Virus record (IMG/VR): IMGVR_UViG_3300037137_001673
Coordinates: 1-64,000 of that record
Strand: one strand, 5' to 3'
From: a virus
Length of the DNA: 64,000 bases
The notes beneath the pieces were generated by a model. The model was not told where the DNA came from, searched no databases, and saw only the letters and a list, made by a program, of their open reading frames with translations. Shown piece after piece: positions 29,625-59,922 of this stretch. The position numbers and the translations under genes were made by a program. Within the stretch, counting starts at the first letter, position 1, and every line of letters starts with the position of its first letter.

Positions 29625-29930
29625 ATGGAAAAAATTTATGTAGGAATAGGAAGAATAACTGCTTCTGCTCCTGCGCAATTTTCAATTTACACAAAACATT
29701 TTATTTACAATCCATTTGTAAATCCTGTTACTTATAATTTTTTCATTTACAAAATTTTAGAAAATAAAAAAACTGCTGAAACATTCCCTATACCACAGGG
29801 AAATACTACTTGTATAAATTCTATTTCAATAGTTTCTGGTTCTGGTCCGCCTGTAAATAATTTTATTTATAATGTTGAAAATTCTTATCGTTTTAATCCT
29901 TTATCAATAGGAGCAAATAATGGCTTCTAA
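29625..29930 (+). CDS. small fibre-linked protein
   Basis: 101 residues. Contains FIYNP and FIYNV segments that resemble the repeat unit of the next gene, whose start it overlaps by 11 nt. Probably translationally coupled to it. Function unknown; perhaps a short relative or detached piece of the repeat protein. Confidence 0.55.
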   Translation: MEKIYVGIGRITASAPAQFSIYTKHFIYNPFVNPVTYNFFIYKILENKKTAETFPIPQGNTTCINSISIVSGSGPPVNNFIYNVENSYRFNPLSIGANNGF

Positions 29931-32900
29931 TGGTTTAGGAAAATTTCCATTTAAAAGTTCTTGGTTTACTACTACCGAAATAATTAATGATGATGATTTT
30001 TGCGATATAGATCATCCATTAAAAAATATATTACAGACCTTCCTATTTGGTGCAGAGGCTGTATATAAAACTTATAATGCTACTGGAAGTTCTGTTACTT
30101 CTGGACTTGCTACTACTTCTGTAGATACTAAAAACTTTATATATAATGCTACTGGAAGTTCATCAACCTCTGGTTCTGCAGATAAATATCGCTGGTCTAA
30201 TTATACAGGATCAGGAACTGCAACTACTTCTGGACTTGCTACTACTTCTAAAACTACAAATACAAAAGAAACTATCTCTACTTTAAAAGCTAAAGGCGTT
30301 CTTTTTGGAACATTAGCTTCTACTCAAAAAAGTGTTACTCTTAACCAAGTTACAATACTTACAGGTAAAGGAAAACTTTACGAACCTACCGTAAAAGTTA
30401 ATTACAGCTACAACGCAACTGGAAGAGTTAATACTTCTGGATTTGCTAATAAAGTTGGTACTTGGCAAGTTGCCTATTTACCAAGAAATTTCTTCCCTAT
30501 TTATATTCCTAGAAATTATTTTACAGATATTTATGAAAGACTTTGTTTTGGATTTGGTTCTATAATTACTTCTGGAATTGCTACTACTTCTAAAACTGAT
30601 GCTGCTGCTTCTAATTTCACTTATAACGCCACTGGAAGTTCATCAACCTCTGGTTCTGCAGATAAATATCGCTGGTCTAATTATACAGGATCAGGAACTG
30701 CAACTACTTCTGGTTCAGCAGATAAATATCGCTGGTCTAATTATACTGGAAGTGGAACTGTAACTACTTCTGGGCTTGCTACTACTCAAAGAGATTTTAC
30801 TTATAATCCAACTGGAACTGCAACTACTTCTGGACTTGCTACTACTTCTATAGGAACAAAGAATTTTATTTATAACGCTACTGGAAGTTCATCAACTTCT
30901 GGTTCTGCAGATAAATATCGCTGGTCTAATTATACTGGAAGTGGAACTGTAACTACTTCTGGATTTACTACTACTCAAAGAGATTTTACTTATAACGCTA
31001 CTGGAACTGCAACTACTTCTGGTTCTGCAGATAAATATCGCTGGTCTAATTATACAGGATCAGGAACTGCAACTACTTCTGGTTCAGCAGATAAATATCG
31101 CTGGTCTAATTATACTGGAAGTGGAACTGTAACTACTTCTGGACTTGCTACTACTTCTGCAGATACAAAGAATTTCATTTATAACGCTACTGGAACTGCA
31201 ACTACTTCTGGACTTGCTACTACTGAAGGTGCCACTACTCTTTCATATTTTGGCTATCAGGATGGAACAGATCAATTATCCATAGGAGCAGCACTTGCTA
31301 GAAAAGGAGCAGGATATGTTTGTCCTGGAACTGGATCGCAAGCAGTAAAAGAACTTTCTGTGCAAATTATTTCTGGAACTACTAATATTAGATTAGGTAT
31401 TTATAATGTAGCTGGAAATCTTATTTTACAGACTTCTAAAAAATCAACTACTGGACCTGGTTGGCTATCTTGGAATGAAAATGAATTAACTTGGTTTATT
31501 CAATCAACTATAATTGGTGGAACTACTTATAAACTTGCAATTGCTAATGATGAAACTTTTGTTATTGCTGGAAACTCAAGTGCGGGAACACTAAATTATA
31601 ATTTAGGAGATTATACAGCAGCTCTACCAGATCCAGAACCAGCTAGTAGTACTACTGGAGGTGAATATAATATAAAGTGTGGAGTTACTTCTACTGATTA
31701 TACAATGGCTTGTGCTGGTTCTGGAACTGCAACTACTTCTGGGCTTGCTACTACTTCTGTAGATACAAAGAATTTCATTTATAACGCCACTGGAAGTTCT
31801 GTTACTTCTGGACTTGCTACTACTTCTGTAGATACTAAAAACTTTATATATAATGCTACTGGAAGTTCATCAACCTCTGGTTCTGCAGATAAATATCGCT
31901 GGTCTAATTATACAGGATCAGGAACTGCAACTACTTCTGGACTTGGTTCTGTTTCATTAGATACTAAGAATTTTACTTATAATGCAACTGGAAGTTCAAC
32001 TACTTCTGGTTCTGCAGATAAATATCGCTGGTCTAATTATACAGGATCAGGAACTGCAACTACTTCTGGACTTGCTACTACTGAAGGTGCGATTTATACC
32101 AAAACTTACGATCCAATTGGAAGTTCAACTACCTCTGGACTTGCTACTACTTCTGTAGATACAAAGAATTTCATTTATAATGCTGTTGGAAGTTCATCAA
32201 CTTCTGGTTCTGCAGATAAATATCGCTGGTCTAATTATACTGGAAGTGGAACTGTAACTACTTCTGGATTTACTACTACTCAAAGAGATTTTACTTATAA
32301 CGCTACTGGAAGTTCATCAACTTCTGGACTTGCTACTACTTCTGTAGATACTAAAAACTTTATTTATAACGCTACTGGAACTGCAACTACTTCTGGTTCT
32401 GCAGATAAATATCGCTGGTCTAATTATACTGGAAGTGGAACTGCAACTACTTCTGGGCTTGGTTCTGTTTCATTAGATACTAAGAATTTTACTTATAATG
32501 CAACTGGAAGTTCAACTACTTCTAAATTTGCTCCTACTTCATTAGATACTAAAAACTTTATTTATAATGCTACTGGAAGTTCTGTTACTTCTGGGCTTGC
32601 CACTACTTCTATAGGAACAAAGAATTTTATATATAATGCTACTGGAAGTTCATCAACTTCTGGTACTGCAGATAAATACCATTGGTCTAATTATACAGGT
32701 TCTGGAACTGTAACTACTTCTGGTAGTGCTGATTATATAGGTCCAGCTAGAATTTATAATACTACTGGAGGAATATTAACTTCTGGAACTGCTAATTATG
32801 TAGTACCAAAATTTATATTTATAGCAACAGCACAGGGAGTTGTCGATGAATATACTACTACAGTAGATTGTTCTACTACTTTAAATATTCAGGAAGGTGA

Positions 32901-35900
32901 TTTACTTGTAGCGACAAGTAGGTGGTATCCATCTACCTTATGGTCATCAGTTGCAGAAATTGGAGGTGCTAATAATTTCACATTGCTAATATTGCTTAAT
33001 AATGGAGCTAGCAATCATTACGAACAGATTGGTTATAAAATTGCTGCTACTGCCAATGTTGCCGCTACAATTAGAGCAACTTGGAACGCGAATACTTTTT
33101 GGAAAAATTTAATTGTTTTTCAGTTTAGACCTGCCCCTGGTTATTCAGTTTCTCTAGATCAAAATGTTAGCACTGCAAATGATGGATTGACTTGGCAAAC
33201 ACCAAATATTACAACTACCGACTTAGATGAAGTAGTATGTGCGATGGTTGCTCATTACCCATATGAGAATTATCCACCTGTTCAAATTGCTGGTACTAAT
33301 GCCGATCTTTATGTAAATGGTCCTTCTGGTGCTTTTGGTTTAAGCCAATTAAGTTATAGCATCTTTACTAGTATACAAACTGACATTTATGCTACTGGAA
33401 CTTTCTCTTATCAGACAGATTTGTGGGGTTGCCAGATAATATCATTTAAGGCACTAGCAGAACATATCTACAATCCTACTGGAATTGTAAATACTTCTGG
33501 ACTTGCTACTACTGTAGGAAATACAAACCCTGTATATATTGCTAATGGAATTGTAAATACTTCTGGACTTGCTACTACTGAAGAATTTAATGCTTATGTT
33601 TATAACGCAACTGGAAGTGTAAATACTACTGGTTTTGCCTCGTTTAGTAGAGATACTATTTACAATGCAATTGGAACAGTAAATACTTCTGGATTTGCTA
33701 TAACTATAGGTTCTATAGCTGGTATATGGAATGCTACAGGAACTGTAAATACTTCTGGATTTGCTACAACTGAAGAACTTGATGCTTATATTTGCAATCC
33801 AGTAGGAAGTGTAAATACTTCTGGAACTGCACAAATTACTCATAGTAATTACATTTATAATCCTACTGGAAGCATAATAACTTCTGGATTTGCCTTAGTT
33901 TCATCTGTTAGTGTTCCTTTTAGAATGCCTGATTTGATAGGTAAAGGAATTCTTTTTGGAGCACCAGCAACTAAAAATAGTGTTACTCTTAATCAAAATA
34001 CTGCTTTTAAAAGTATAGGAAAAATTTATACTCCTACAGTAGTTATTTATCCTACTCGTATTTATATAGCAAGAGGTGGAGTTGCTACTTCTGGTATTGC
34101 TCGCGTTAATTTTAGAAATTACACTTACAACGCAACTGGAAGTGTAAATACTTCTGGTGTTGCTAGAACTATTTTTAAAAATTTTATTTACAATGGAACT
34201 GGAAGAGTAAATACTTCTGGTTTTGCTCTAACTATTGGTGCCTATAAACCAATTGGTTACTGGCCTATTTACTACTGGGCAATTTACTGGCCTATACATT
34301 ACTGGCCTGATTCAATGCCTACTGCTAATTATGTTTATGGCGCATTAGGAATTGTAAATACTTCTGGTGTTGCTGAAACAATTGGTCCTGTTGTTAAAAC
34401 TTACAGTGCAACTGGAAGAATAAATACTTCTGGTTTTGCTACCACACAACAAGGTTATATCTATAATCCTACTGGAAGAGTAAATACTTCTGGTTTTGCA
34501 GCAGGAATTATTTTTAATAACTATCAAAATGTCTTTAATGGAACTGGAAGGATAAGTACTTCTGGATTTGCTTTAACTATAGCAGTTAATGCTCCTTTTA
34601 AATTAACTACTTTAATAGGTAAGGGAATTCTTTTTGGAACTTTAGCTGGCACTGATATTTATCTAAAATCAAATGCAGCATTAAAGAGTTTTGGAAAACT
34701 TTACTCACCTATAGTTACTATTACCGCTACAGGTTATACTTATAATCCTACTGGAAGAGTTTTTACTTCTGGATTTGCTACAACTATAACTTCTGGTTAT
34801 TCCAAGACTTACAATCCAACAGGAAGGGTATTAACTTCTAAATTTGCTCCTACTTCTGTAGATACTAAAAACTTTATTTATAATGCTACTGGAAGTTCAT
34901 CAACTTCTGGACTAGCAACTACTTTTGTATCTAAAGATTTTATTTATAATGCTACTGGAAGAGTTAATACTTCTGGACTAGCAACTACTTTTGTATCTAA
35001 AGATTTTATTTATAATGCTATTGGAATTGTAAATACTTCTGGATTTGCCACAATTTTGTTAAGCACTAGATACTTTATTTATAGTGCAGAAGTAGCAATT
35101 GTTATTACTTCTGGCTTTGCTACAACTTTATTAGTTACAAAAAATTTTGTTTATAATACTTCTGGAACTATTTTAACTTCTGGGTTTGCTTCTACAATTG
35201 GAAATATAACTGCCACTTATAATCCTACTGGAAGAATAAATACTTCTGGAATTGCTACAACTGTACTAGGCACTTCTAATCAAATTTATAATCCTACTGG
35301 AAGAATAAATACTTCTGGATTTGCTACTATACAACAAGGTTATATTTATAATGTAACTGGAAGAATAAATACTTCTGGATTTGCTACTACTTTATTAAAT
35401 ACTTTGACTCCAGTTTATAACACTACTGGAAGTGTATTAACTTCTGGATTTGCTATAACTTCGTTAAGTACAAGAAATTTCACGTATAATACTACTGGAA
35501 GAATAAATACTTCTGGAATTGCTACAACTGTACTAGGCACTTCTAATCAAATTTATAATCCTACTGGAAAAATAAATACTTCTGGACTTGCTACTACTTT
35601 AATAAGTTATAAGAACTTTATTTATAACGCAACTGGAATTATAAATACTTCTGGACTTGCTACAACTAATAAAAATATTTATTCTCAATCTTATAATGCA
35701 ACTGGAAGGGTAAATACTTCTGGTTTTGCCCTCGCTTTTGAATTTAATAATTATACTTACGAACCAAAAGGAAGTTCCACTACTTCTGGATTTGCTAGAA
35801 CTTTAATAAATGCAAAGAACTTTATTTACAACGCAACTGGAAATATAAATACTTCTGGAACTCTTACTTTAGTAATTTCTTTCTTTGTAGTATTTTATGT

Positions 35901-36669
35901 AGCAATCGGAACAGTAAATACTTCTGGACTTGCTACTACTTTAATAAGTTATAAGAACTTTATTTACAATGCAATCGGAACAGTAAATACTTCTGGACTT
36001 GCTACAACTTTATTAAATACAAAGAATTTTGTATATAATGGTACCGGAAGAATTCTTACTGCTGGATCTGCTAGTATAACTACATCTGTATTTATTCAAG
36101 CCTATATATCAATAGTAACTATAAGAACTTCTGGTCTTGCTACTACTTTAATAAGCTATAAGAATTTTATTTATAACGCAACTGGAATTATAAATACTTC
36201 TGGATTTGCTAGAACTACAGAATTTGCTTTATATACTTTTAATACTACTGGAATTATAAATACTTCTGGAACAGCACAGTATCAACGAGGATTTATTTAT
36301 AAAGGAATTGGAATAATTAGAGCTAGTGGTAAAGCAAGTTCAGTTGGTTACATAACTGCTATTTATATAGGAAGAGGAACAATTAGAACCAGTGGATTTG
36401 CTCCTACTGGAAAGAACGAACATTCTTATATAGGAAATGGAATAATTCATACTTCTGGATTTGCTAAAACATCTCGTAAGAGAAAACGCTTTATTTCTTT
36501 CACGGAAGTAGTTGGTGACACAAGTATAAATTACTTTAATCTATTTACAGGGAAAGTTAAAGTAGGTTCTACAGAAATTAGAAAATTATTAAAGGGAAAA
36601 AATTCTGGTAGAGAGGCTGACTTTTCTTATTTTGATGAATGGACCAAAGGCGATGGACGAAAAGAATGA
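29920..36669 (+). CDS. giant repeat protein (2249 residues), fibre or adhesin-like
   Basis: Starts behind AGGAG. Most of the protein is dozens of units built on FxYNxTGxxxTSGxATT; the first third alternates them with about 11 copies of SADKYRWSNYTGSG that are almost identical at DNA level. Two non-repeat domains interrupt: near residues 440-590 (related to the first domain of the 19852 gene) and near 970-1190 (related to the 27231 protein). The last 75 residues are basic and unlike the repeats, a possible anchor. No signal peptide. Likely a very long tail fibre or virion surface filament. Confidence 0.8.
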   Translation: MASNGLGKFPFKSSWFTTTEIINDDDFCDIDHPLKNILQTFLFGAEAVYKTYNATGSSVTSGLATTSVDTKNFIYNATGSSSTSGSADKYRWSNYTGSGTATTSGLATTSKTTNTKETISTLKAKGVLFGTLASTQKSVTLNQVTILTGKGKLYEPTVKVNYSYNATGRVNTSGFANKVGTWQVAYLPRNFFPIYIPRNYFTDIYERLCFGFGSIITSGIATTSKTDAAASNFTYNATGSSSTSGSADKYRWSNYTGSGTATTSGSADKYRWSNYTGSGTVTTSGLATTQRDFTYNPTGTATTSGLATTSIGTKNFIYNATGSSSTSGSADKYRWSNYTGSGTVTTSGFTTTQRDFTYNATGTATTSGSADKYRWSNYTGSGTATTSGSADKYRWSNYTGSGTVTTSGLATTSADTKNFIYNATGTATTSGLATTEGATTLSYFGYQDGTDQLSIGAALARKGAGYVCPGTGSQAVKELSVQIISGTTNIRLGIYNVAGNLILQTSKKSTTGPGWLSWNENELTWFIQSTIIGGTTYKLAIANDETFVIAGNSSAGTLNYNLGDYTAALPDPEPASSTTGGEYNIKCGVTSTDYTMACAGSGTATTSGLATTSVDTKNFIYNATGSSVTSGLATTSVDTKNFIYNATGSSSTSGSADKYRWSNYTGSGTATTSGLGSVSLDTKNFTYNATGSSTTSGSADKYRWSNYTGSGTATTSGLATTEGAIYTKTYDPIGSSTTSGLATTSVDTKNFIYNAVGSSSTSGSADKYRWSNYTGSGTVTTSGFTTTQRDFTYNATGSSSTSGLATTSVDTKNFIYNATGTATTSGSADKYRWSNYTGSGTATTSGLGSVSLDTKNFTYNATGSSTTSKFAPTSLDTKNFIYNATGSSVTSGLATTSIGTKNFIYNATGSSSTSGTADKYHWSNYTGSGTVTTSGSADYIGPARIYNTTGGILTSGTANYVVPKFIFIATAQGVVDEYTTTVDCSTTLNIQEGDLLVATSRWYPSTLWSSVAEIGGANNFTLLILLNNGASNHYEQIGYKIAATANVAATIRATWNANTFWKNLIVFQFRPAPGYSVSLDQNVSTANDGLTWQTPNITTTDLDEVVCAMVAHYPYENYPPVQIAGTNADLYVNGPSGAFGLSQLSYSIFTSIQTDIYATGTFSYQTDLWGCQIISFKALAEHIYNPTGIVNTSGLATTVGNTNPVYIANGIVNTSGLATTEEFNAYVYNATGSVNTTGFASFSRDTIYNAIGTVNTSGFAITIGSIAGIWNATGTVNTSGFATTEELDAYICNPVGSVNTSGTAQITHSNYIYNPTGSIITSGFALVSSVSVPFRMPDLIGKGILFGAPATKNSVTLNQNTAFKSIGKIYTPTVVIYPTRIYIARGGVATSGIARVNFRNYTYNATGSVNTSGVARTIFKNFIYNGTGRVNTSGFALTIGAYKPIGYWPIYYWAIYWPIHYWPDSMPTANYVYGALGIVNTSGVAETIGPVVKTYSATGRINTSGFATTQQGYIYNPTGRVNTSGFAAGIIFNNYQNVFNGTGRISTSGFALTIAVNAPFKLTTLIGKGILFGTLAGTDIYLKSNAALKSFGKLYSPIVTITATGYTYNPTGRVFTSGFATTITSGYSKTYNPTGRVLTSKFAPTSVDTKNFIYNATGSSSTSGLATTFVSKDFIYNATGRVNTSGLATTFVSKDFIYNAIGIVNTSGFATILLSTRYFIYSAEVAIVITSGFATTLLVTKNFVYNTSGTILTSGFASTIGNITATYNPTGRINTSGIATTVLGTSNQIYNPTGRINTSGFATIQQGYIYNVTGRINTSGFATTLLNTLTPVYNTTGSVLTSGFAITSLSTRNFTYNTTGRINTSGIATTVLGTSNQIYNPTGKINTSGLATTLISYKNFIYNATGIINTSGLATTNKNIYSQSYNATGRVNTSGFALAFEFNNYTYEPKGSSTTSGFARTLINAKNFIYNATGNINTSGTLTLVISFFVVFYVAIGTVNTSGLATTLISYKNFIYNAIGTVNTSGLATTLLNTKNFVYNGTGRILTAGSASITTSVFIQAYISIVTIRTSGLATTLISYKNFIYNATGIINTSGFARTTEFALYTFNTTGIINTSGTAQYQRGFIYKGIGIIRASGKASSVGYITAIYIGRGTIRTSGFAPTGKNEHSYIGNGIIHTSGFAKTSRKRKRFISFTEVVGDTSINYFNLFTGKVKVGSTEIRKLLKGKNSGREADFSYFDEWTKGDGRKE

Positions 36670-47080: not shown

Positions 47081-48232
47081 TTACACTCTTACCATTGCTT
47101 TTTGTGGAAAATTCAAAATTAAGGATTTGGTAATCCTTTTAGGTAATTCTCTTTTAAGTTCTTTTACTAGAAGTTTCTTATTTACAGGAATTTTTGTAAT
47201 AGTAGAATCAATTTCGCTTGCTAAATCTTTTATAGAAATTTTTACGAGCATTGAAAGAATTTTGTAAATGTTTGATTCAGTCATTTGGATATTTTTTATA
47301 TCCAATTCATGCTTCCAGTAAATTGTCCTTGCTTCCGTGCAAAACTTATCTAAAATACTTCCGGCTATAGTATATACTAAAACATCACTATTCTTATAAA
47401 TGAAAGAAGTTTCTTTCTTAATTGAATTTGATGAATTAAAAATTCTTTTTTCTACAAAGGGAGAGTTAGTTACTTTAGCAATTAATCTTGAGGAATATTC
47501 TGAGTCTTCAATAAAAGGTCTTATAATAATTCCCTCCATTAATTGTCCTGGAAGTTCAGAAGTCATAGAAACTGCATTTGCTAGTTTTTTAATTTCTTCT
47601 TCATCAAAATTTATTAATTTAATCAATGGAACATGAAGAAGTTCAACAGATTCCATTAAATTAGAAAAATCATCCCAGCACATCCAGTTTTCATTAAGAA
47701 AGATGTCATGAAAATAAATTGCTTTTGAACTGGAAGATTTAAAATAAGAAATCTCTTTAGAAATTTCATTGTTTATAAGTTCTCCAAATAAACAAAATGG
47801 GACAGAAATTTTTTCTGCTAACTTAATAAATTCATCCTTGTAATTTACAAGTGATTTTATCATAAATTGACTTTCCAAATCATCTTTTAAGTTTCCCCAA
47901 CGATTTCCAAATTTATAAGTTTTTCCATCGAACATTACACGAATACTTAAGCCACGTAATTTTTCTAATACTACAATGGCTCGTTTATCAAATTTTTCAC
48001 AAAGTTCATCATTTAGTTCTTCCACTCTTGCTATAGCTTTATCATTGGATTTATTTGTAAAACCAGTCTCCCAACCATTTCTTCTACAATAACCTTCATA
48101 ATAATCATCATCGTAGTTATATGGATAATTATTTGGGTTAGTTACTGTTGTAGCTGGGACATTTTGTGTTTGTATTTGATTAATTGGTTCAGGCATTTGT
48201 TTTCTTTTTTTAAAAAATCTTCGTGTAGTCAT
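47081..48232 (-). CDS. RNA ligase, Rnl2-like (RNA_ligase family)
   Basis: 383 residues. Nucleotidyltransferase motifs in order: motif I EKLRGLSIRV near residue 89 (lysine nucleophile present, but Arg where Asp is usual in KxDG), motif III CLFGELIN, motif IV MEGIIIRP, motif V RLIAKVTNSPF. Such ligases seal nicked RNA, for example tRNAs cut by host anticodon nucleases, which fits the nearby tRNA island. An N-terminal proline/asparagine-rich stretch of about 45 residues is extra. A terminator precedes the gene. Confidence 0.8.
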   Translation of the reverse strand: MTTRRFFKKRKQMPEPINQIQTQNVPATTVTNPNNYPYNYDDDYYEGYCRRNGWETGFTNKSNDKAIARVEELNDELCEKFDKRAIVVLEKLRGLSIRVMFDGKTYKFGNRWGNLKDDLESQFMIKSLVNYKDEFIKLAEKISVPFCLFGELINNEISKEISYFKSSSSKAIYFHDIFLNENWMCWDDFSNLMESVELLHVPLIKLINFDEEEIKKLANAVSMTSELPGQLMEGIIIRPFIEDSEYSSRLIAKVTNSPFVEKRIFNSSNSIKKETSFIYKNSDVLVYTIAGSILDKFCTEARTIYWKHELDIKNIQMTESNIYKILSMLVKISIKDLASEIDSTITKIPVNKKLLVKELKRELPKRITKSLILNFPQKAMVRV

Positions 48233-48824: not shown

Positions 48825-48896
48825 AAGGGCTAGGGAAGGTTGAACTCCGCATCTAAACCTTGAAAGGGTTTTGACCTACCTTTAGTCGATAGCCCC
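48825..48896 (-). tRNA. tRNA-Glu (anticodon TTC), copy 1
   Basis: Acceptor GGGGCTA/TAGCCCT, D arm with GGTAG, anticodon stem AAACC/GGTTT around CTTTCAA, T loop TTCAACC with a G-U closing pair. No encoded CCA. A second Glu tRNA is at 63425. Confidence 0.85.
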
Positions 48897-50118: not shown

Positions 50119-50192
50119 TACTGGGAGAGAGATTTGAACTCTCATGACACTTATTTTGAGTAAGCGAAGTTTGCCAATTACTTCATCCCAGC
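50119..50192 (-). tRNA. tRNA with Leu anticodon CAA but short variable loop
   Basis: Acceptor GCTGGGA/TCCCAGT, D stem AAGT/ACTT, anticodon stem GCTTA/TAAGT around CTCAAAA, 5-nt variable loop GTCAT, T arm GAGAG-TTCAAAT-CTCTC, A73. Bacterial Leu tRNAs normally have a long variable arm, so charging identity is uncertain. Confidence 0.85.
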
Positions 50193-50446
50193 TTGTTATA
50201 TTTTTCAAAAGCGATTTGTCCCCACCAAGTTCTTTTTTGTGCTTCTACTTGTTTTGAAATTATATGTTCTTCGATAATTCCTTTTTTCAAAGTTTCAAAA
50301 AACATTCCAGCTCCAGATAGAAATTCTTTTGCTCCTTCATATGGAGTTAAACTTGCTTCTTTGTATAGAGAAAAAATTATGTCATCTAATTTTACAAAAA
50401 TTTCTCCACCTATATTTATATGAATGAAATTGTGGTCCATAGGCAT
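50183..50446 (-). CDS. hypothetical protein ending inside tRNA
   Basis: 87 residues behind GAGGT. No family recognised. Its TGA stop (50183-50185) is U8-G9-A10 of the tRNA that follows, so gene and tRNA overlap by 10 nt. It lies between two tRNA genes. Confidence 0.65.
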   Translation of the reverse strand: MPMDHNFIHINIGGEIFVKLDDIIFSLYKEASLTPYEGAKEFLSGAGMFFETLKKGIIEEHIISKQVEAQKRTWWGQIAFEKYNKLG

Positions 50447-50460
50447 TTACTTTACCTCAT

Positions 50461-50547
50461 TGCGCAAGAAAGGAATTGAACCTTCACGCCCCTTACGGAA
50501 CACGAGACTCTCATTCTCGTATGGCTACCAGATTACATCACTTGCGC
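50461..50547 (-). tRNA. tRNA-Leu (GAG), class II
   Basis: Acceptor GCGCAAG/CTTGCGC, anticodon stem CGAGA/TCTCG around ATGAGAG, long variable arm (about 17 nt with CC/GG pairing), T loop TTCAATT, A73. Confidence 0.9.
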
Positions 50548-50550
50548 GTT

Positions 50551-50625
50551 TGCGAGCAAAAGGAGTTGAACCTTCAAAAAGTAGATTCTAAATCTACCGC
50601 GTCTAGCCAGTTGCGCCATGCTCGC
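50551..50625 (-). tRNA. tRNA with Leu anticodon TAG but short variable loop
   Basis: Acceptor GCGAGCA/TGCTCGC, D stem GCG/CGC, anticodon stem GTAGA/TCTAC around TTTAGAA, variable loop TTTTT, T arm GAAGG-TTCAACT-CCTTT, A73. Adjacent to the class II Leu tRNA. Confidence 0.87.
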
Positions 50626-50630
50626 ATAAT

Positions 50631-51077
50631 TTAAAGATTTTCTAATTCGTTATTAAACCCATCGAAATCTGCTCTTTCAATTTTAAAAGCAATAATTTCT
50701 TTAAGATCAAATTTCTCATGAGAGTAAATAAATACAAATACAAAAGGGGAATCTTCTGTTGTAATTACTCTCCAGATATAACTTTTTTCTTTGAAGTAAA
50801 CTAAATTAATAATTGAACCTTCTACTTTTTCAGCAAAAATTTTTGCTACATGAAGAACTCCTCCATTGGCAGAAATTATTTTAGTTCCCTCAACTTCGAA
50901 AACTCCGCTAACTCCATAATCACTTATAATGGTATTTCCACCATCAAAAGAATGATACATTTTGTCCCATGTTCCTTGAAAAACTTTGTCAAATTCTTTA
51001 ACTTCAACAATCTTTGGCTGAGAAAAAATTGTAAATGATAAGAAGAGGAACAATAAAATGGAAAAAATCTTTTTCAT
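50631..51077 (-). CDS. predicted secreted protein
   Basis: 148 residues. N-terminal signal peptide: KK, hydrophobic ILLFLFLSFTIF, then a small-residue site before QPKIVEV near residue 20. The rest is beta-rich without cysteines. Lies between tRNA genes. Possibly periplasmic or surface acting, for example in exclusion of other phages; unproven. Confidence 0.68.
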   Translation of the reverse strand: MKKIFSILLFLFLSFTIFSQPKIVEVKEFDKVFQGTWDKMYHSFDGGNTIISDYGVSGVFEVEGTKIISANGGVLHVAKIFAEKVEGSIINLVYFKEKSYIWRVITTEDSPFVFVFIYSHEKFDLKEIIAFKIERADFDGFNNELENL

Positions 51078-51090
51078 AAAAAATCCTTAT

Positions 51091-51165
51091 TAGCGGAGGA
51101 GAGATTCGAACTCTCACTGACATCCTTTTAAGGGACGTGCCTCCTGCCAGTTGGGCTACTCCGCC
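51091..51165 (-). tRNA. tRNA with Leu anticodon TAA but short variable loop
   Basis: Acceptor GGCGGAG/CTCCGCT, anticodon stem CGTCC/GGATG around CTTAAAA, 5-nt variable loop TCAGT, T arm GAGAG-TTCGAAT-CTCTC, A73. Third Leu-anticodon tRNA with a class I body. Confidence 0.88.
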
Positions 51166-51821
51166 AAGTTAAAACTTACATTATTTTTAAACATTATATT
51201 TCTTATTCTAGCATAATTTCCTGCTTTAGGGGTTAATCCTGCTTTTATCAACAATTGTCTTATATTTTTAGTTTCACTTAATAACTCTATAATCTTTTCT
51301 TCACTTACCTGTATTTTACCTTTTCCTAAATTTCTCGCTCTAAAAGTATCAGATTGTGAATGACAATTAGGACAAAGAAATTCTAAGTTTTCTAATCTGT
51401 TGTCATTGTTAAATCCATTTTTATGCTCTAGTTCTAGAACTAATTTTTCTTCTTTCCAGATTCCTTCATTTCCACATTTTCTACATTTATATGGAATTAA
51501 GTTATATTTTATTAAATAATGTTTTAATCTACAAATTGCTATAAAAGAATTTGCTGAAAATATTTTATCTTTAGGAATTTTAGTTTTTATTCTTTCATCG
51601 TCAAAAAATGTTTTTCCCTTATTCCAACTAATTACTTTTTTAGTCTTTATACATTTTGTTAAATATTCTATTGATGCTCTACCTTCTTTGTGAGCTTTGC
51701 TAAGCCCTTCACTATTTTTTTTTCTATTAACTGGACATTGAGTATTCCACTTTTCACAGGTATTTCTTCCTGACTTATTTATAAATCTTGCTTCTTTTCC
51801 ACAACCATATTCGCATAGCAT
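51156..51821 (-). CDS. HNH homing endonuclease with N-terminal zinc finger
   Basis: 221 residues behind GGAGG. N-terminal Cys cluster (MLCEYGCGKEA), a KTKKVISWNKGKTF segment, then the HNH core: CRKCGNEG, LELEHKNGFNNDNRLENLEFLCPNCHSQ, and a C-terminal helix-turn-helix-like part (IRQLLIKAGL). Its TAG stop is positions 8-10 of the following tRNA. Located among tRNA genes, which such nucleases often target. Confidence 0.88.
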   Translation of the reverse strand: MLCEYGCGKEARFINKSGRNTCEKWNTQCPVNRKKNSEGLSKAHKEGRASIEYLTKCIKTKKVISWNKGKTFFDDERIKTKIPKDKIFSANSFIAICRLKHYLIKYNLIPYKCRKCGNEGIWKEEKLVLELEHKNGFNNDNRLENLEFLCPNCHSQSDTFRARNLGKGKIQVSEEKIIELLSETKNIRQLLIKAGLTPKAGNYARIRNIMFKNNVSFNLAE

Positions 51822-51896: not shown

Positions 51897-51962
51897 AGGG
51901 ATGTAAAGGATTCTAACCTTCAACTTACTTTGATGTAAATTTTTCTTTTAAACTAACATCCC
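51897..51962 (-). tRNA. degenerate tRNA-like sequence (CAA?)
   Basis: Acceptor GGGATGT/ACATCCC and a T-arm AAGG-TTAGAAT-CCTT are present, but the D loop lacks GG and the anticodon loop (ATCAAA between TTTAC and GTAAG) has only 6 nt. Probably decayed or very unusual. Confidence 0.45.
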
Positions 51963-52968: not shown

Positions 52969-52992
52969 TTCTACCTACTGAGTTATAGTAGC
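52968..52992 (-). other. 5'-half tRNA remnant (acceptor strand and D arm)
   Basis: GCTACTA-TA-ACTCAGTAGGTAGAAT reads as the first 25 nt of a tRNA, but no matching anticodon arm or 3' acceptor strand follows; the HNH hairpin and gene begin instead. The radical SAM gene ends at its positions 8-10. Confidence 0.5.
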
Positions 52993-54929
52993 ATTCTTTC
53001 ACAATTATAAATATAGTTCCCATTTTTATAAGAGAACCAAACTACTTCTTCATACCAATCTTCCCAGTTTAACCACCTAATTTTAGAGCAGAGAATTTTA
53101 TATTGAACCTCTTTTTCCACTAGCTCAATTTCAATTCCTCTCAAAATTGCTTGGTAACACTCCCATATATTATAACTTAAATTTAAATTCTTGTCAAATC
53201 CTTGAAATGGTAGTTTTAAAAGAGTTTTATTTAATAATAAACTTTCGTGAAGTAGTTTTTCAAAACCAAAAGTATCTATTTTTGTTAAATAATCTGTAAG
53301 TATCTTTTCTGCTTCTACATAAAACTCATTTAATCTATTACTTTTAATTATGTCAATAAATTTATATTCATCAGTAGGCCACCAGATATTTAACCATTCT
53401 TTTGATTCACAATGAGGAATTTCTCCATTTTGTGTTTCCAATGCTTTTTTAGTAAAAAAAGAAATTATTTCTTCAAAAATTCCTGTAGATTTATTTTCAG
53501 TAAAAATTTCAGCTAATTTTCTAAAACTTATTCCATAAAATTTATTTAGAATAACAAATGGAATTTGTAGAAGTTTATTAAAGTGTAAAAGAGAAATTAC
53601 CCAAGCAAAAACTTTTGCCTTTATCCAGTCTTCTCTAGTTAAAGTATTTGTTGATGTTACTACTAATTCATTTTCAAAAACTTCTTCTACAGAAAGACTT
53701 CCGTGCCGATTAACAAGTTTCTTTTCCATTATATCAAAACTATATTTTTCTTGATATTCAATTCTTCCCATTTCAGCATTAGGGAGAATATTTAAATCTG
53801 AAAAAGTAATTCTGTTATGTTGTCCGTTTTCTATTATTTCTGAAATTCCATTTACATAAGAATCGTAAGTTTCTTCTGGCAGTCCTAAAATAATGTCTGT
53901 AAAAGCATCCACTCCAATGTTAGTTAATTTCTGTTTTACTTCTTTGAAGTGATTAATTTTCATATTTATTCTTTTTATTGCTTTTAAGGTATCTTCATTT
54001 GTAGATTGAAGGGAAAGAGAAATTGTAGTATTTAATCCAGCTTCTGCTAATAATTTGTAAGTATTATAAGTGTGTTCCTTAAAGTTTTTAGTGCTTTGAA
54101 CTGATATTCCTTCTGGATAACCAAACTTTATTTTATTATCTGCTACAAATTTAATAATTTCATAATCTCTTTCCAGCATTCCAAAATTAGAATCACAGCA
54201 AGTTATAAACTCAATTTTATTATTCTTGAACCATTCTACTTCTTTATAAAGTCTTTCCATGCCAAAAGTAAAAACTCTATTTTGTGTGGCAGAACCCCAG
54301 TCACAATAAGTGCAAGAAAAAGGACAACCTCTATTGGTTTCCCAAAGAGCAATCCAATTTACTTTTGGATTTGCTTTTATTAGTGGCTGGAAGATTTCTT
54401 CTAAAAATGGAGATGGAATACTATTTATTTCAAAAATTCTTGGAGGGTATTGAGAAAGTATTACTTCATTGTTTTTGTCTAAATAATTTATTCCGGAAAT
54501 TTCTCTCCAGTTACGATTAAAAAGATTTTTTAAAATTAAAGTAAAAGTTATTTCTCCATTACCAAGACAAGCCAAATTAACTTGAGGATTTTCTCTTAAA
54601 AATTTTTCTACTTTATCACAAGAAATTCCTGGTCCACCAAAAACGGTTATTACATTAGAATCTCTTTTTTTTAATAGTCTTGCTATTTCTAAAGAAATTC
54701 TTGTATTCCAAGTGTATAAACTAAAAAAAATTATCTCTGCACCAGATAATTCTCTTACTGCTTCTTTTAATGGAATTCTTTTATAGATTGGCAAAAGAAA
54801 TTCAAAATCACTTACATTATCTAAATACTTTTCAGCATATGCTTGTAATAATCCTAACGAATATGGCAAATACTCTTGATTAAAAAAAGAAGTATTTATC
54901 TGAACCATTCCTACTTTAATTTTTTGCAT
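52983..54929 (-). CDS. B12-binding-type radical SAM protein
   Basis: 648 residues behind AAAGGAG. N-terminal Rossmann-like cobalamin-binding-type domain (residues 1-150, VFGGPGISCDKV), then the radical SAM cluster motif RGCPFSCTYCDWGS with CxxxCxxC near residue 200 and a TIM-barrel region with LSLQSTNEDTLKAIKR. A helical domain of about 250 residues follows. Such enzymes do methyl transfers or ring rearrangements using SAM and cobalamin. Placement in the tRNA island hints at RNA modification or a host-metabolite role; not proven. TAA stop lies in a tRNA remnant. Confidence 0.85.
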   Translation of the reverse strand: MQKIKVGMVQINTSFFNQEYLPYSLGLLQAYAEKYLDNVSDFEFLLPIYKRIPLKEAVRELSGAEIIFFSLYTWNTRISLEIARLLKKRDSNVITVFGGPGISCDKVEKFLRENPQVNLACLGNGEITFTLILKNLFNRNWREISGINYLDKNNEVILSQYPPRIFEINSIPSPFLEEIFQPLIKANPKVNWIALWETNRGCPFSCTYCDWGSATQNRVFTFGMERLYKEVEWFKNNKIEFITCCDSNFGMLERDYEIIKFVADNKIKFGYPEGISVQSTKNFKEHTYNTYKLLAEAGLNTTISLSLQSTNEDTLKAIKRINMKINHFKEVKQKLTNIGVDAFTDIILGLPEETYDSYVNGISEIIENGQHNRITFSDLNILPNAEMGRIEYQEKYSFDIMEKKLVNRHGSLSVEEVFENELVVTSTNTLTREDWIKAKVFAWVISLLHFNKLLQIPFVILNKFYGISFRKLAEIFTENKSTGIFEEIISFFTKKALETQNGEIPHCESKEWLNIWWPTDEYKFIDIIKSNRLNEFYVEAEKILTDYLTKIDTFGFEKLLHESLLLNKTLLKLPFQGFDKNLNLSYNIWECYQAILRGIEIELVEKEVQYKILCSKIRWLNWEDWYEEVVWFSYKNGNYIYNCERMLL

Positions 54930-58827: not shown

Positions 58828-59088
58828 TTAGAAAATTCCCTGTTGAATGAAGTATCTAAACAATCTGCCACGACTTTTAATCCATTCAATAGAAATTCCA
58901 ATTGCTGATTTTAGTCCTTTAGGTTTGCCTATTTCTGTATCTTGGAAATCATAAGCAGCTGGACACATATCGCAAGGTTTTTCATTAATTTCACCATACC
59001 CAGCATTGCAGCAATTGTTTTTACATTTCCAGCATACAACCATCCAAGTTTTACAAAGTAAACAGTATTCCCATTTGTATGGGTTCAC
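58828..59088 (-). CDS. small cysteine-rich protein (GTG start)
   Basis: 86 residues; GTG start overlaps the Pth2 stop. Nine cysteines in pairs (CLLCKTWMVVCWKCKNNCC..., CDMC) suggest one or two zinc sites in the first 45 residues, followed by a basic tail. Coupled to Pth2 translation. Function unknown. Confidence 0.65.
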   Translation of the reverse strand: MNPYKWEYCLLCKTWMVVCWKCKNNCCNAGYGEINEKPCDMCPAAYDFQDTEIGKPKGLKSAIGISIEWIKSRGRLFRYFIQQGIF

Positions 59089-59480
59089 AGCAGTTTCAAT
59101 TCTCCTGTTATTGCATCTATTTTTTCTTCTTCATCTGGACCTATTGCTATACAAGTATTTGTAGGCATTCCATGAAATTCTGTAAGCCCGTTATCTTTAA
59201 TAAGAGCATTAGGAATTTTTGCTTCAAAAGCTTTTTTCTGTATTTCTAGAAGTTCTTCTTCGCTATTAACACCAACTACAATTTTAGTAAAAGAACCATC
59301 TCCATAATTCATCCATTTAATCATGGGTTCAGGTATATTAAATATTTCAAATCTGTCATGGTCAGTCCATTCTGCCATATCGAAAAACACTTTCATTGAG
59401 GCATGAGCTACCTGTGCGGCAAGTTTTCCTTTCCGCATATTTAAATCTTTACGAACTACTATTACTTGTTTTACGCTCAT
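59085..59480 (-). CDS. pth2: peptidyl-tRNA hydrolase, Pth2 family
   Basis: 131 residues, the usual family length. Signature segments: KQVIVVRKDLNMRKGKLAAQ with VAHAS, then KIVVGVNSEEELLEIQKKA, KDNGLTEF and TCIAIGP...IDAITGELKLL. Pth2 enzymes, typical of archaea and eukaryotes, release tRNA from stalled peptidyl-tRNA. In a phage with over 20 tRNAs it would recycle tRNA during heavy late translation. Downstream of a tRNA cluster and coupled to a Cys-rich gene. Confidence 0.9.
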   Translation of the reverse strand: MSVKQVIVVRKDLNMRKGKLAAQVAHASMKVFFDMAEWTDHDRFEIFNIPEPMIKWMNYGDGSFTKIVVGVNSEEELLEIQKKAFEAKIPNALIKDNGLTEFHGMPTNTCIAIGPDEEEKIDAITGELKLL

Positions 59481-59841: not shown

Positions 59842-59922
59842 AGCTAATAGTAGGATTTGAACCCACGGTGTTTGTATTCTTGCTTACAAAGCAAGCCCAT
59901 TCGACCACTCTGGCATATTAGC
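59842..59922 (-). tRNA. tRNA with Thr anticodon TGT on a class II-like body
   Basis: Acceptor GCTAATA/TATTAGC, Ser-like D arm CCAGAGTGGTCGAATGG, anticodon stem CTTGC/GCAAG around TTTGTAA, 12-nt variable region AATACAAACACC without a stem, T arm GTGGG-TTCAAAT-CCTAC. Amino-acid identity is uncertain (Thr by anticodon, Ser by shape). Confidence 0.8.

What the first reader, a model, noticed from the sequence alone, without database searches (positions are those of the whole stretch)
50119..51165. Leu-anticodon tRNAs (CAA, TAG, TAA) with short variable loops
Three tRNAs with Leu anticodons have 5-nt variable loops although bacterial Leu tRNAs have long arms; a normal class II Leu(GAG) lies between them. 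All three keep A73. Either they are charged by a phage-tolerant LeuRS contact, or they are charged with another amino acid and re-assign Leu codons, for example to toxify or diversify proteins.
Basis: partly seen in the sequence, partly recalled or inferred. Interest (0 to 1): 0.75.

Follow-up and report, generated by a model that had tools for sequence, protein, structure and literature searches.

The report
Phage leucine tRNAs lacking long arm
Three virus-encoded leucine tRNAs lack the long side arm that textbooks give to bacterial leucine tRNAs, but they keep the features the leucine-charging enzyme is known to read, and the same short form is common in phages and a housekeeping gene in mycobacteria, so they most likely just carry leucine.

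Summary
Confirmed: tRNAs with anticodons CAA (50119-50192), UAG (50550-50626) and UAA (51090-51166) have 5-nt variable loops and A73; Leu(GAG) between them is class II. The premise that bacterial tRNALeu always has a long arm is wrong. Short-arm tRNALeu(UAA/CAA) is a chromosomal gene in 55 of 61 sampled Mycobacteriaceae; in one complete genome the two are the only UUA/UUG readers. Among viral contigs about a quarter of Leu tRNAs are short (10/41 in a Leu-neutral sample), against 0 of 140 Ser and Tyr tRNAs. The short form keeps the E. coli LeuRS identity set (A73, A14, A15-U48, G18G19, A20a): 91% of short, 90% of long, at most 36% of any other isotype. All three window tRNAs have it (UAG with its A one place on, at 20b). 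UUA, UUG and CUA in the virus's own proteins sit at Leu columns as often as CUU does. A relative of this phage has a long-arm Leu(UAG) that is the best match of the short one here. Most likely they are ordinary leucine acceptors; recoding is not supported. A short-loop tRNALeu in a horizontally acquired tRNA cluster is already in print. Aminoacylation itself was not tested.

The parts
50119..50192 (-). tRNA-Leu(CAA), class I shape, 5-nt variable loop GUCAU, A73, G1:U72
   Evidence: (48.4 bits); isotype model gives Leu
50461..50547 (-). tRNA-Leu(GAG), class II, 17-nt variable region, same LeuRS identity set
   Evidence: isotype model gives Leu
50550..50626 (-). tRNA-Leu(UAG), class I shape, 5-nt variable loop UUUUU, A73; 2 nt from Leu(GAG)
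   Evidence: (54.7 bits); isotype model gives Leu; best match among the tRNAs of relatives G002 and G003 is the long-arm Leu(UAG) of G002, 75% body identity
51090..51166 (-). tRNA-Leu(UAA), class I shape, 5-nt variable loop UCAGU (the CAGU motif of chromosomal actinobacterial short tRNALeu), A73, G1:U72
   Evidence: (53.3 bits); isotype model ambiguous between Ala and Leu, but 3:70 is C-G

Best explanation
The three genes encode working leucine tRNAs whose long variable arm has been replaced by a 5-nt loop. Bacterial LeuRS reads A73, the A15-U48 Levitt pair, G18G19, A20a and the D-loop/T-loop contacts, and does not need the long arm or the anticodon, so the host LeuRS charges them with leucine. 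They then read UUG, CUA and UUA as part of the phage's large tRNA set, alongside a class II Leu(GAG). Arm loss is tolerated for Leu but not for Ser or Tyr. Shown here: structure, identity set, kinship with long-arm Leu tRNAs, breadth, and codon meaning in the phage's own proteins. Inferred: charging by the unknown host's LeuRS, expression, and use in infection.
For: Identity set complete in 91% of 139 viral short Leu, 90% of 135 long Leu, at most 36% of other isotypes. In the window A73, A14, A15-U48 and G18G19 hold in all three and A20a in CAA and UAA; in UAG the A is at 20b. Published: E. coli tRNALeu variants lacking anticodon arm and long variable arm stay active, and A73, A15-U48, G18G19 and A20a are determinants (PMC9976931). 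Mycolicibacter sp. MYC123: short UAA and CAA are its only UUA/UUG readers, with long GAG, UAG, CAG. 55 of 61 Mycobacteriaceae have the short gene, 0 of 120 genomes of the phylum sampled around a Massilia genome. Leu 10/41 short in a Leu-neutral viral sample; Ser 0/97 and Tyr 0/43 over all samples. Nearest non-short class of short Leu is long Leu in 89/139, and reciprocally 115/135. Isotype model blind to anticodon and arm, trained with bacterial chromosomal Leu included: 115/139 viral short Leu called Leu, 3/400 false calls. Relative G002 has long Leu(UAG) and Leu(UAA) plus short Leu(CAA). Homologue residues at TTA/TTG/CTA codons are 63/55/60% Leu against 58% at CTT. G3:U70 never seen in viral Leu tRNAs.
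Against: The window Leu(UAA) is placed by the isotype model slightly nearer Ala than Leu (-1.0 against -2.5). With long-arm phage Leu alone as training set only 80 of 139 short Leu are called Leu. Window CAA and UAA bodies match no tRNA of the relatives well. The host is unknown, so its LeuRS could not be examined. No expression or charging data exist for these genes.
Confidence: 0.9

Rival explanations
1. The tRNAs are charged with another amino acid and recode UUA, UUG and CUA to diversify or poison proteins.
For: Class I shape; isotype model slightly prefers Ala for the UAA gene. Mistranslating tRNAs with unusual arms are known elsewhere (nematode nev-tRNAs, PMC4300185, abstract).
Against: The codons are common in the phage's own genes (TTA 407, CTA 170, TTG 113 of 15,541 codons) and lie at Leu columns. 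No G3:U70. LeuRS identity set intact. Same shape is a housekeeping Leu tRNA in mycobacteria.
Confidence: 0.03
2. The arm was lost because it is a liability: host nucleases, toxins or competing binders that recognise the long arm act on class II tRNAs, so short tRNALeu keeps phage translation going under attack. Charging is still with leucine (a reason for the shape, compatible with the best explanation).
For: Isolated phages of Erwinia and E. coli carry the short form, and short-form queries hit tRNA-Leu genes of Salmonella and Vibrio phages, while 0 of 120 genomes of the phylum sampled around a Massilia genome match one short-form pattern. A long variable loop is a recognition handle for at least one tRNA toxin, MenT3 (PMC11541572). 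An RNA ligase lies beside the tRNA region.
Against: MenT3 prefers tRNASer and acts poorly on tRNALeu. Mycobacteria have the short form as housekeeping genes. Most phage Leu tRNAs are still long. Nothing here links short arms to any defence system.
Confidence: 0.12
3. They are decaying or unexpressed tRNA genes kept by hitch-hiking with homing endonucleases.
For: HNH and GIY-YIG genes lie among the tRNAs; two tRNA-like matches that ARAGORN does not call are nearby.
Against: Stems are intact; across 139 viral short Leu tRNAs 96 to 99% of stem pairs are standard; identity set conserved at 91%.
Confidence: 0.04

Closest known systems
Chromosomal short-variable-loop tRNALeu(UAA) and tRNALeu(CAA) of Mycobacteriaceae and other Actinomycetota
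   Same: 5-nt variable loop, A73, AAYUGGCAG D loop, A15-U48, Leu UUR anticodons; CAGU variable-loop motif shared with the window UAA gene
   Different: Chromosomal single genes of GC-rich bacteria; the window genes lie in an AT-rich phage tRNA cluster and include UAG
tRNALeu(TAG) with short variable loop in the tRNA cluster, thought horizontally acquired, of the Mycobacterium mucogenicum clade (PMC6582537)
   Same: Short variable loop on a Leu(TAG) in a cluster holding an HNH gene, beside a normal long-arm copy elsewhere
   Different: Integrated in a bacterial chromosome; sequences not compared here
Short tRNA-Leu genes of Erwinia phage phiEa21-4 (Ounavirinae) and Escherichia phage 4MG (Vequintavirinae)
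   Same: Several Leu anticodons with 5-nt loops in one phage; A73 and A15-U48 in phiEa21-4, with G1:U72 in two of its three
   Different: Genomes of 85 and 149 kb, known enterobacterial hosts, CCA encoded in the gene
Human mitochondrial tRNALeu(UUR)
   Same: No long arm, recognised by LeuRS through A73 and A14 (PMC9976931)
   Different: Organelle system; partly unfolded anticodon branch

Membership tests
tRNALeu (leucine isoacceptors) | Discriminator A73 | tested here: met
   A73 in all three
tRNALeu (leucine isoacceptors) | A15-U48 Levitt pair, U8 and A14 | tested here: met
   A15/U48 and U8/A14 in all three
tRNALeu (leucine isoacceptors) | G18G19 and A20a in D loop | tested here: met
   G18G19 in all three; A20a in CAA and UAA; in UAG the A is one place on, at 20b
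tRNALeu (leucine isoacceptors) | Leu anticodon | tested here: met
   CAA, UAG, UAA
tRNALeu (leucine isoacceptors) | Overall body like other tRNALeu (isotype model without anticodon and arm) | tested here: inconclusive
   CAA and UAG give Leu; UAA gives Ala -1.0, Leu -2.5
tRNALeu (leucine isoacceptors) | Charged with leucine by LeuRS | not testable with these tools
   No aminoacylation data
Class II tRNA | Variable region of 10 nt or more | tested here: not met
   5 nt in all three
tRNAAla (considered because of the isotype score of the UAA gene) | G3:U70 | tested here: not met
   C3-G70 in UAA; U3-A70 in CAA; G3-C70 in UAG

The most novel reading that the evidence does not exclude
Arm loss in phage tRNALeu is adaptive: because LeuRS, unlike SerRS and TyrRS, does not need the arm, phages can shed it and escape host nucleases, toxins or other factors that recognise long-arm tRNAs, giving phages of hosts that lack the short form a tRNALeu their hosts do not have.
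Probability: 0.12. Interest if true: 0.65.

Novelty: new member of a known kind. Interest (0 to 1): 0.33.

Why it matters
It removes a supposed recoding signal and corrects a textbook rule that misleads annotation: a short variable loop does not argue against leucine identity. The wider survey gives a natural test of synthetase rules: Leu tRNAs shed the arm often, Ser and Tyr never in 140 cases, as expected if LeuRS ignores the arm while SerRS and probably TyrRS need it. I did not find the pattern in phages, as opposed to single cases, described in the open-access papers searched; that search was limited.

Tried and rejected
Recoding through AlaRS (G3:U70 looked for, absent). Codon reassignment in the phage (homologue columns: Leu). 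A phage LeuRS: no class I synthetase domain PF00133 in the 75,970-base record, though the record may be a fragment. Chance or pseudogene: rejected on Rfam scores and stem integrity. Phylum-wide scan around a Mycolicibacter genome with a strict pattern (13 of 149) undercounts because the pattern demands TTGG, so the family-level scan with a second pattern was used. Literature searches with 'short variable loop', 'extra arm' and tRNA-Leu plus phage returned nothing direct; PMC6582537 came up. The phage T5 record NC_005859 is not held.

Full report
Observation. ARAGORN places tRNA-Leu(CAA) at 50119-50192, Leu(GAG) at 50461-50547, Leu(UAG) at 50550-50626 and Leu(UAA) at 51090-51166, all on the minus strand. 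Parsing the cloverleaves gives variable regions of 5, 17, 5 and 5 nt and A73 in all four. Rfam tRNA scores are 48.4 (CAA), 54.7 (UAG) and 53.3 (UAA) bits. The window is 64 kb of a 75,970-base virus record with about 30 tRNA genes, one-third G+C, distantly related in its major head protein (31-33% identity) to two uncultured phages of 484 and 595 kb.

Is the shape unusual? In the first 80 loci ARAGORN found 89 short Leu tRNAs in 53 contigs, with anticodons CAA, UAA, UAG, GAG and CAG. To avoid selecting on Leu, a third scan was anchored on tRNA-Arg(UCU): of 41 Leu tRNAs in those loci 10 are short, in 8 contigs. Over all samples none of 97 Ser and none of 43 Tyr tRNAs is short. Isolated phages have the kind too: Erwinia phage phiEa21-4 has three and Escherichia phage 4MG, host K-12 MG1655, has two. 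Searches with short-tRNALeu queries hit annotated tRNA-Leu genes in Felix-like phages of E. coli and Salmonella, in Vibrio phage KVP40, Bacillus phage P59, mycobacteriophages and Streptomyces phages; the arm length of those was not checked one by one.

Bacteria. The same pattern in GTDB contigs found short Leu(UAA) and Leu(CAA) in chromosomes of Mycobacterium, Nocardia, Rhodococcus, Corynebacterium, Bifidobacterium and Streptomyces (CAA), among others. In Mycolicibacter sp. MYC123 all 45 tRNAs were read: Leu has five genes, UAA and CAA short, GAG, UAG and CAG long. The short ones are therefore its only dedicated readers of UUA and UUG and must carry leucine. The gene is present in 55 of 61 sampled Mycobacteriaceae and in 0 of 120 genomes of the phylum sampled around a Massilia genome (Pseudomonadota, going by that locus's title). 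The MenT3 paper lists M. tuberculosis tRNALeu-2, 3 and 5 as the ones with a long loop, which fits.

Identity. For E. coli the review PMC9976931 gives A73, A15-U48, G18G19 and A20a as determinants and reports that variants missing anticodon arm and long variable arm stay active. All three window tRNAs have A73, A14, A15-U48 and G18G19; A20a is present in CAA and UAA and sits at 20b in UAG. Over viral tRNAs the whole set is met by 91% of 139 short Leu, 90% of 135 long Leu and at most 36% (Arg) of any other isotype; both Leu sets were mostly fetched with the same D-loop pattern, which did not ask for A14 or A15. G3:U70 occurs in none of the viral Leu tRNAs.

Kinship. By body identity, leaving out anticodon and arm, the nearest non-short class of short Leu tRNAs is long Leu in 89 of 139, and the nearest class of long Leu other than itself is short Leu in 115 of 135. 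A position-weight isotype model without anticodon or arm, trained on long-arm phage Leu alone, of 139 short ones Leu against 3 false calls in 400; adding bacterial chromosomal Leu to training raises it to 115. Window CAA and UAG come out as Leu; UAA is near a tie between Ala and Leu. Short Leu loops form their own set: G46 in 21% against 76% of other 5-nt loops, and a CAGU motif shared by bacterial and viral members and by the window UAA gene.

Relatives. The head protein found 21 relatives at 54-70% identity. One, G002, has 29 tRNA matches with long Leu(UAG), long Leu(UAA) and short Leu(CAA); another, G003, has long UAG and UAA. The best match of the window's short UAG among these tRNAs is the long UAG of G002, at 75% body identity. 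So the same isoacceptor occurs with and without the arm in one phage group.

Codon meaning. TTA, CTA and TTG make up 690 of 1,131 Leu codons in the window's larger ORFs. Against homologues from the relatives, Leu is found in 63, 60 and 55% of paired residues at these codons, 58% at CTT and 4-17% at Ile codons. This argues strongly against wholesale reassignment; low-level mistranslation it could not see.

Verdict. They are most likely plain leucine tRNAs that lack a part LeuRS does not need. A short-loop tRNALeu(TAG) in a tRNA cluster thought to be horizontally acquired in the M. mucogenicum clade was reported in 2019 (PMC6582537), and a 2008 study remarks that several Sec, Ser, Tyr and Leu tRNAs have short arms (PMC2265525), so the kind is known. 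What seems not to be spelled out in the papers searched is how common it is in phages and that there it is confined to Leu. Why some phages carry the short form while their hosts apparently do not is open; escape from arm-recognising factors is possible but untested.

Noticed in passing
window 59842-59922 (-): tRNA-Thr(UGU) with a 12-nt variable region, a Ser-like D arm and U73, the mirror image of the Leu case; similar long-arm Thr(UGU) with U73 in L228 and L058.
   Followed up: partly
L040, L057, L062, L064, L077, L089, L092, L101, L112, L120, L134, L145, L146, L191, L207, L264: Many viral contigs carry tRNA-Ile(UAU) with a 21-25-nt variable arm whose loop has a conserved AGAT motif; PMC6582537 reports a tRNA-Ile(TAT) in the same cluster as the short Leu(TAG), but its arm length was not looked up.
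   Followed up: no
L570:15361 and L075, L108, L184, L198: tRNA-Asn(GUU) with a 14-17-nt variable region in phages, one of them a relative of the window phage.
   Followed up: no
window 48825-48896 (-) and 51897-51962 (-): Two tRNA matches that ARAGORN does not call: one with a UUC anticodon loop and U73 (41 bits), one degenerate with a poor D arm (39 bits).
   Followed up: partly
window 47081-48232 (-), 59085-59480 (-), 52983-54929 (-): RNA ligase (PF09414), peptidyl-tRNA hydrolase PTH2 and a radical SAM protein with a B12-binding domain in or beside the tRNA region.
   Followed up: no
window 29920-36669 (+): A 2,249-residue protein made largely of short repeats such as YNATGSSSTSGLATT, without Pfam match.
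   Followed up: no
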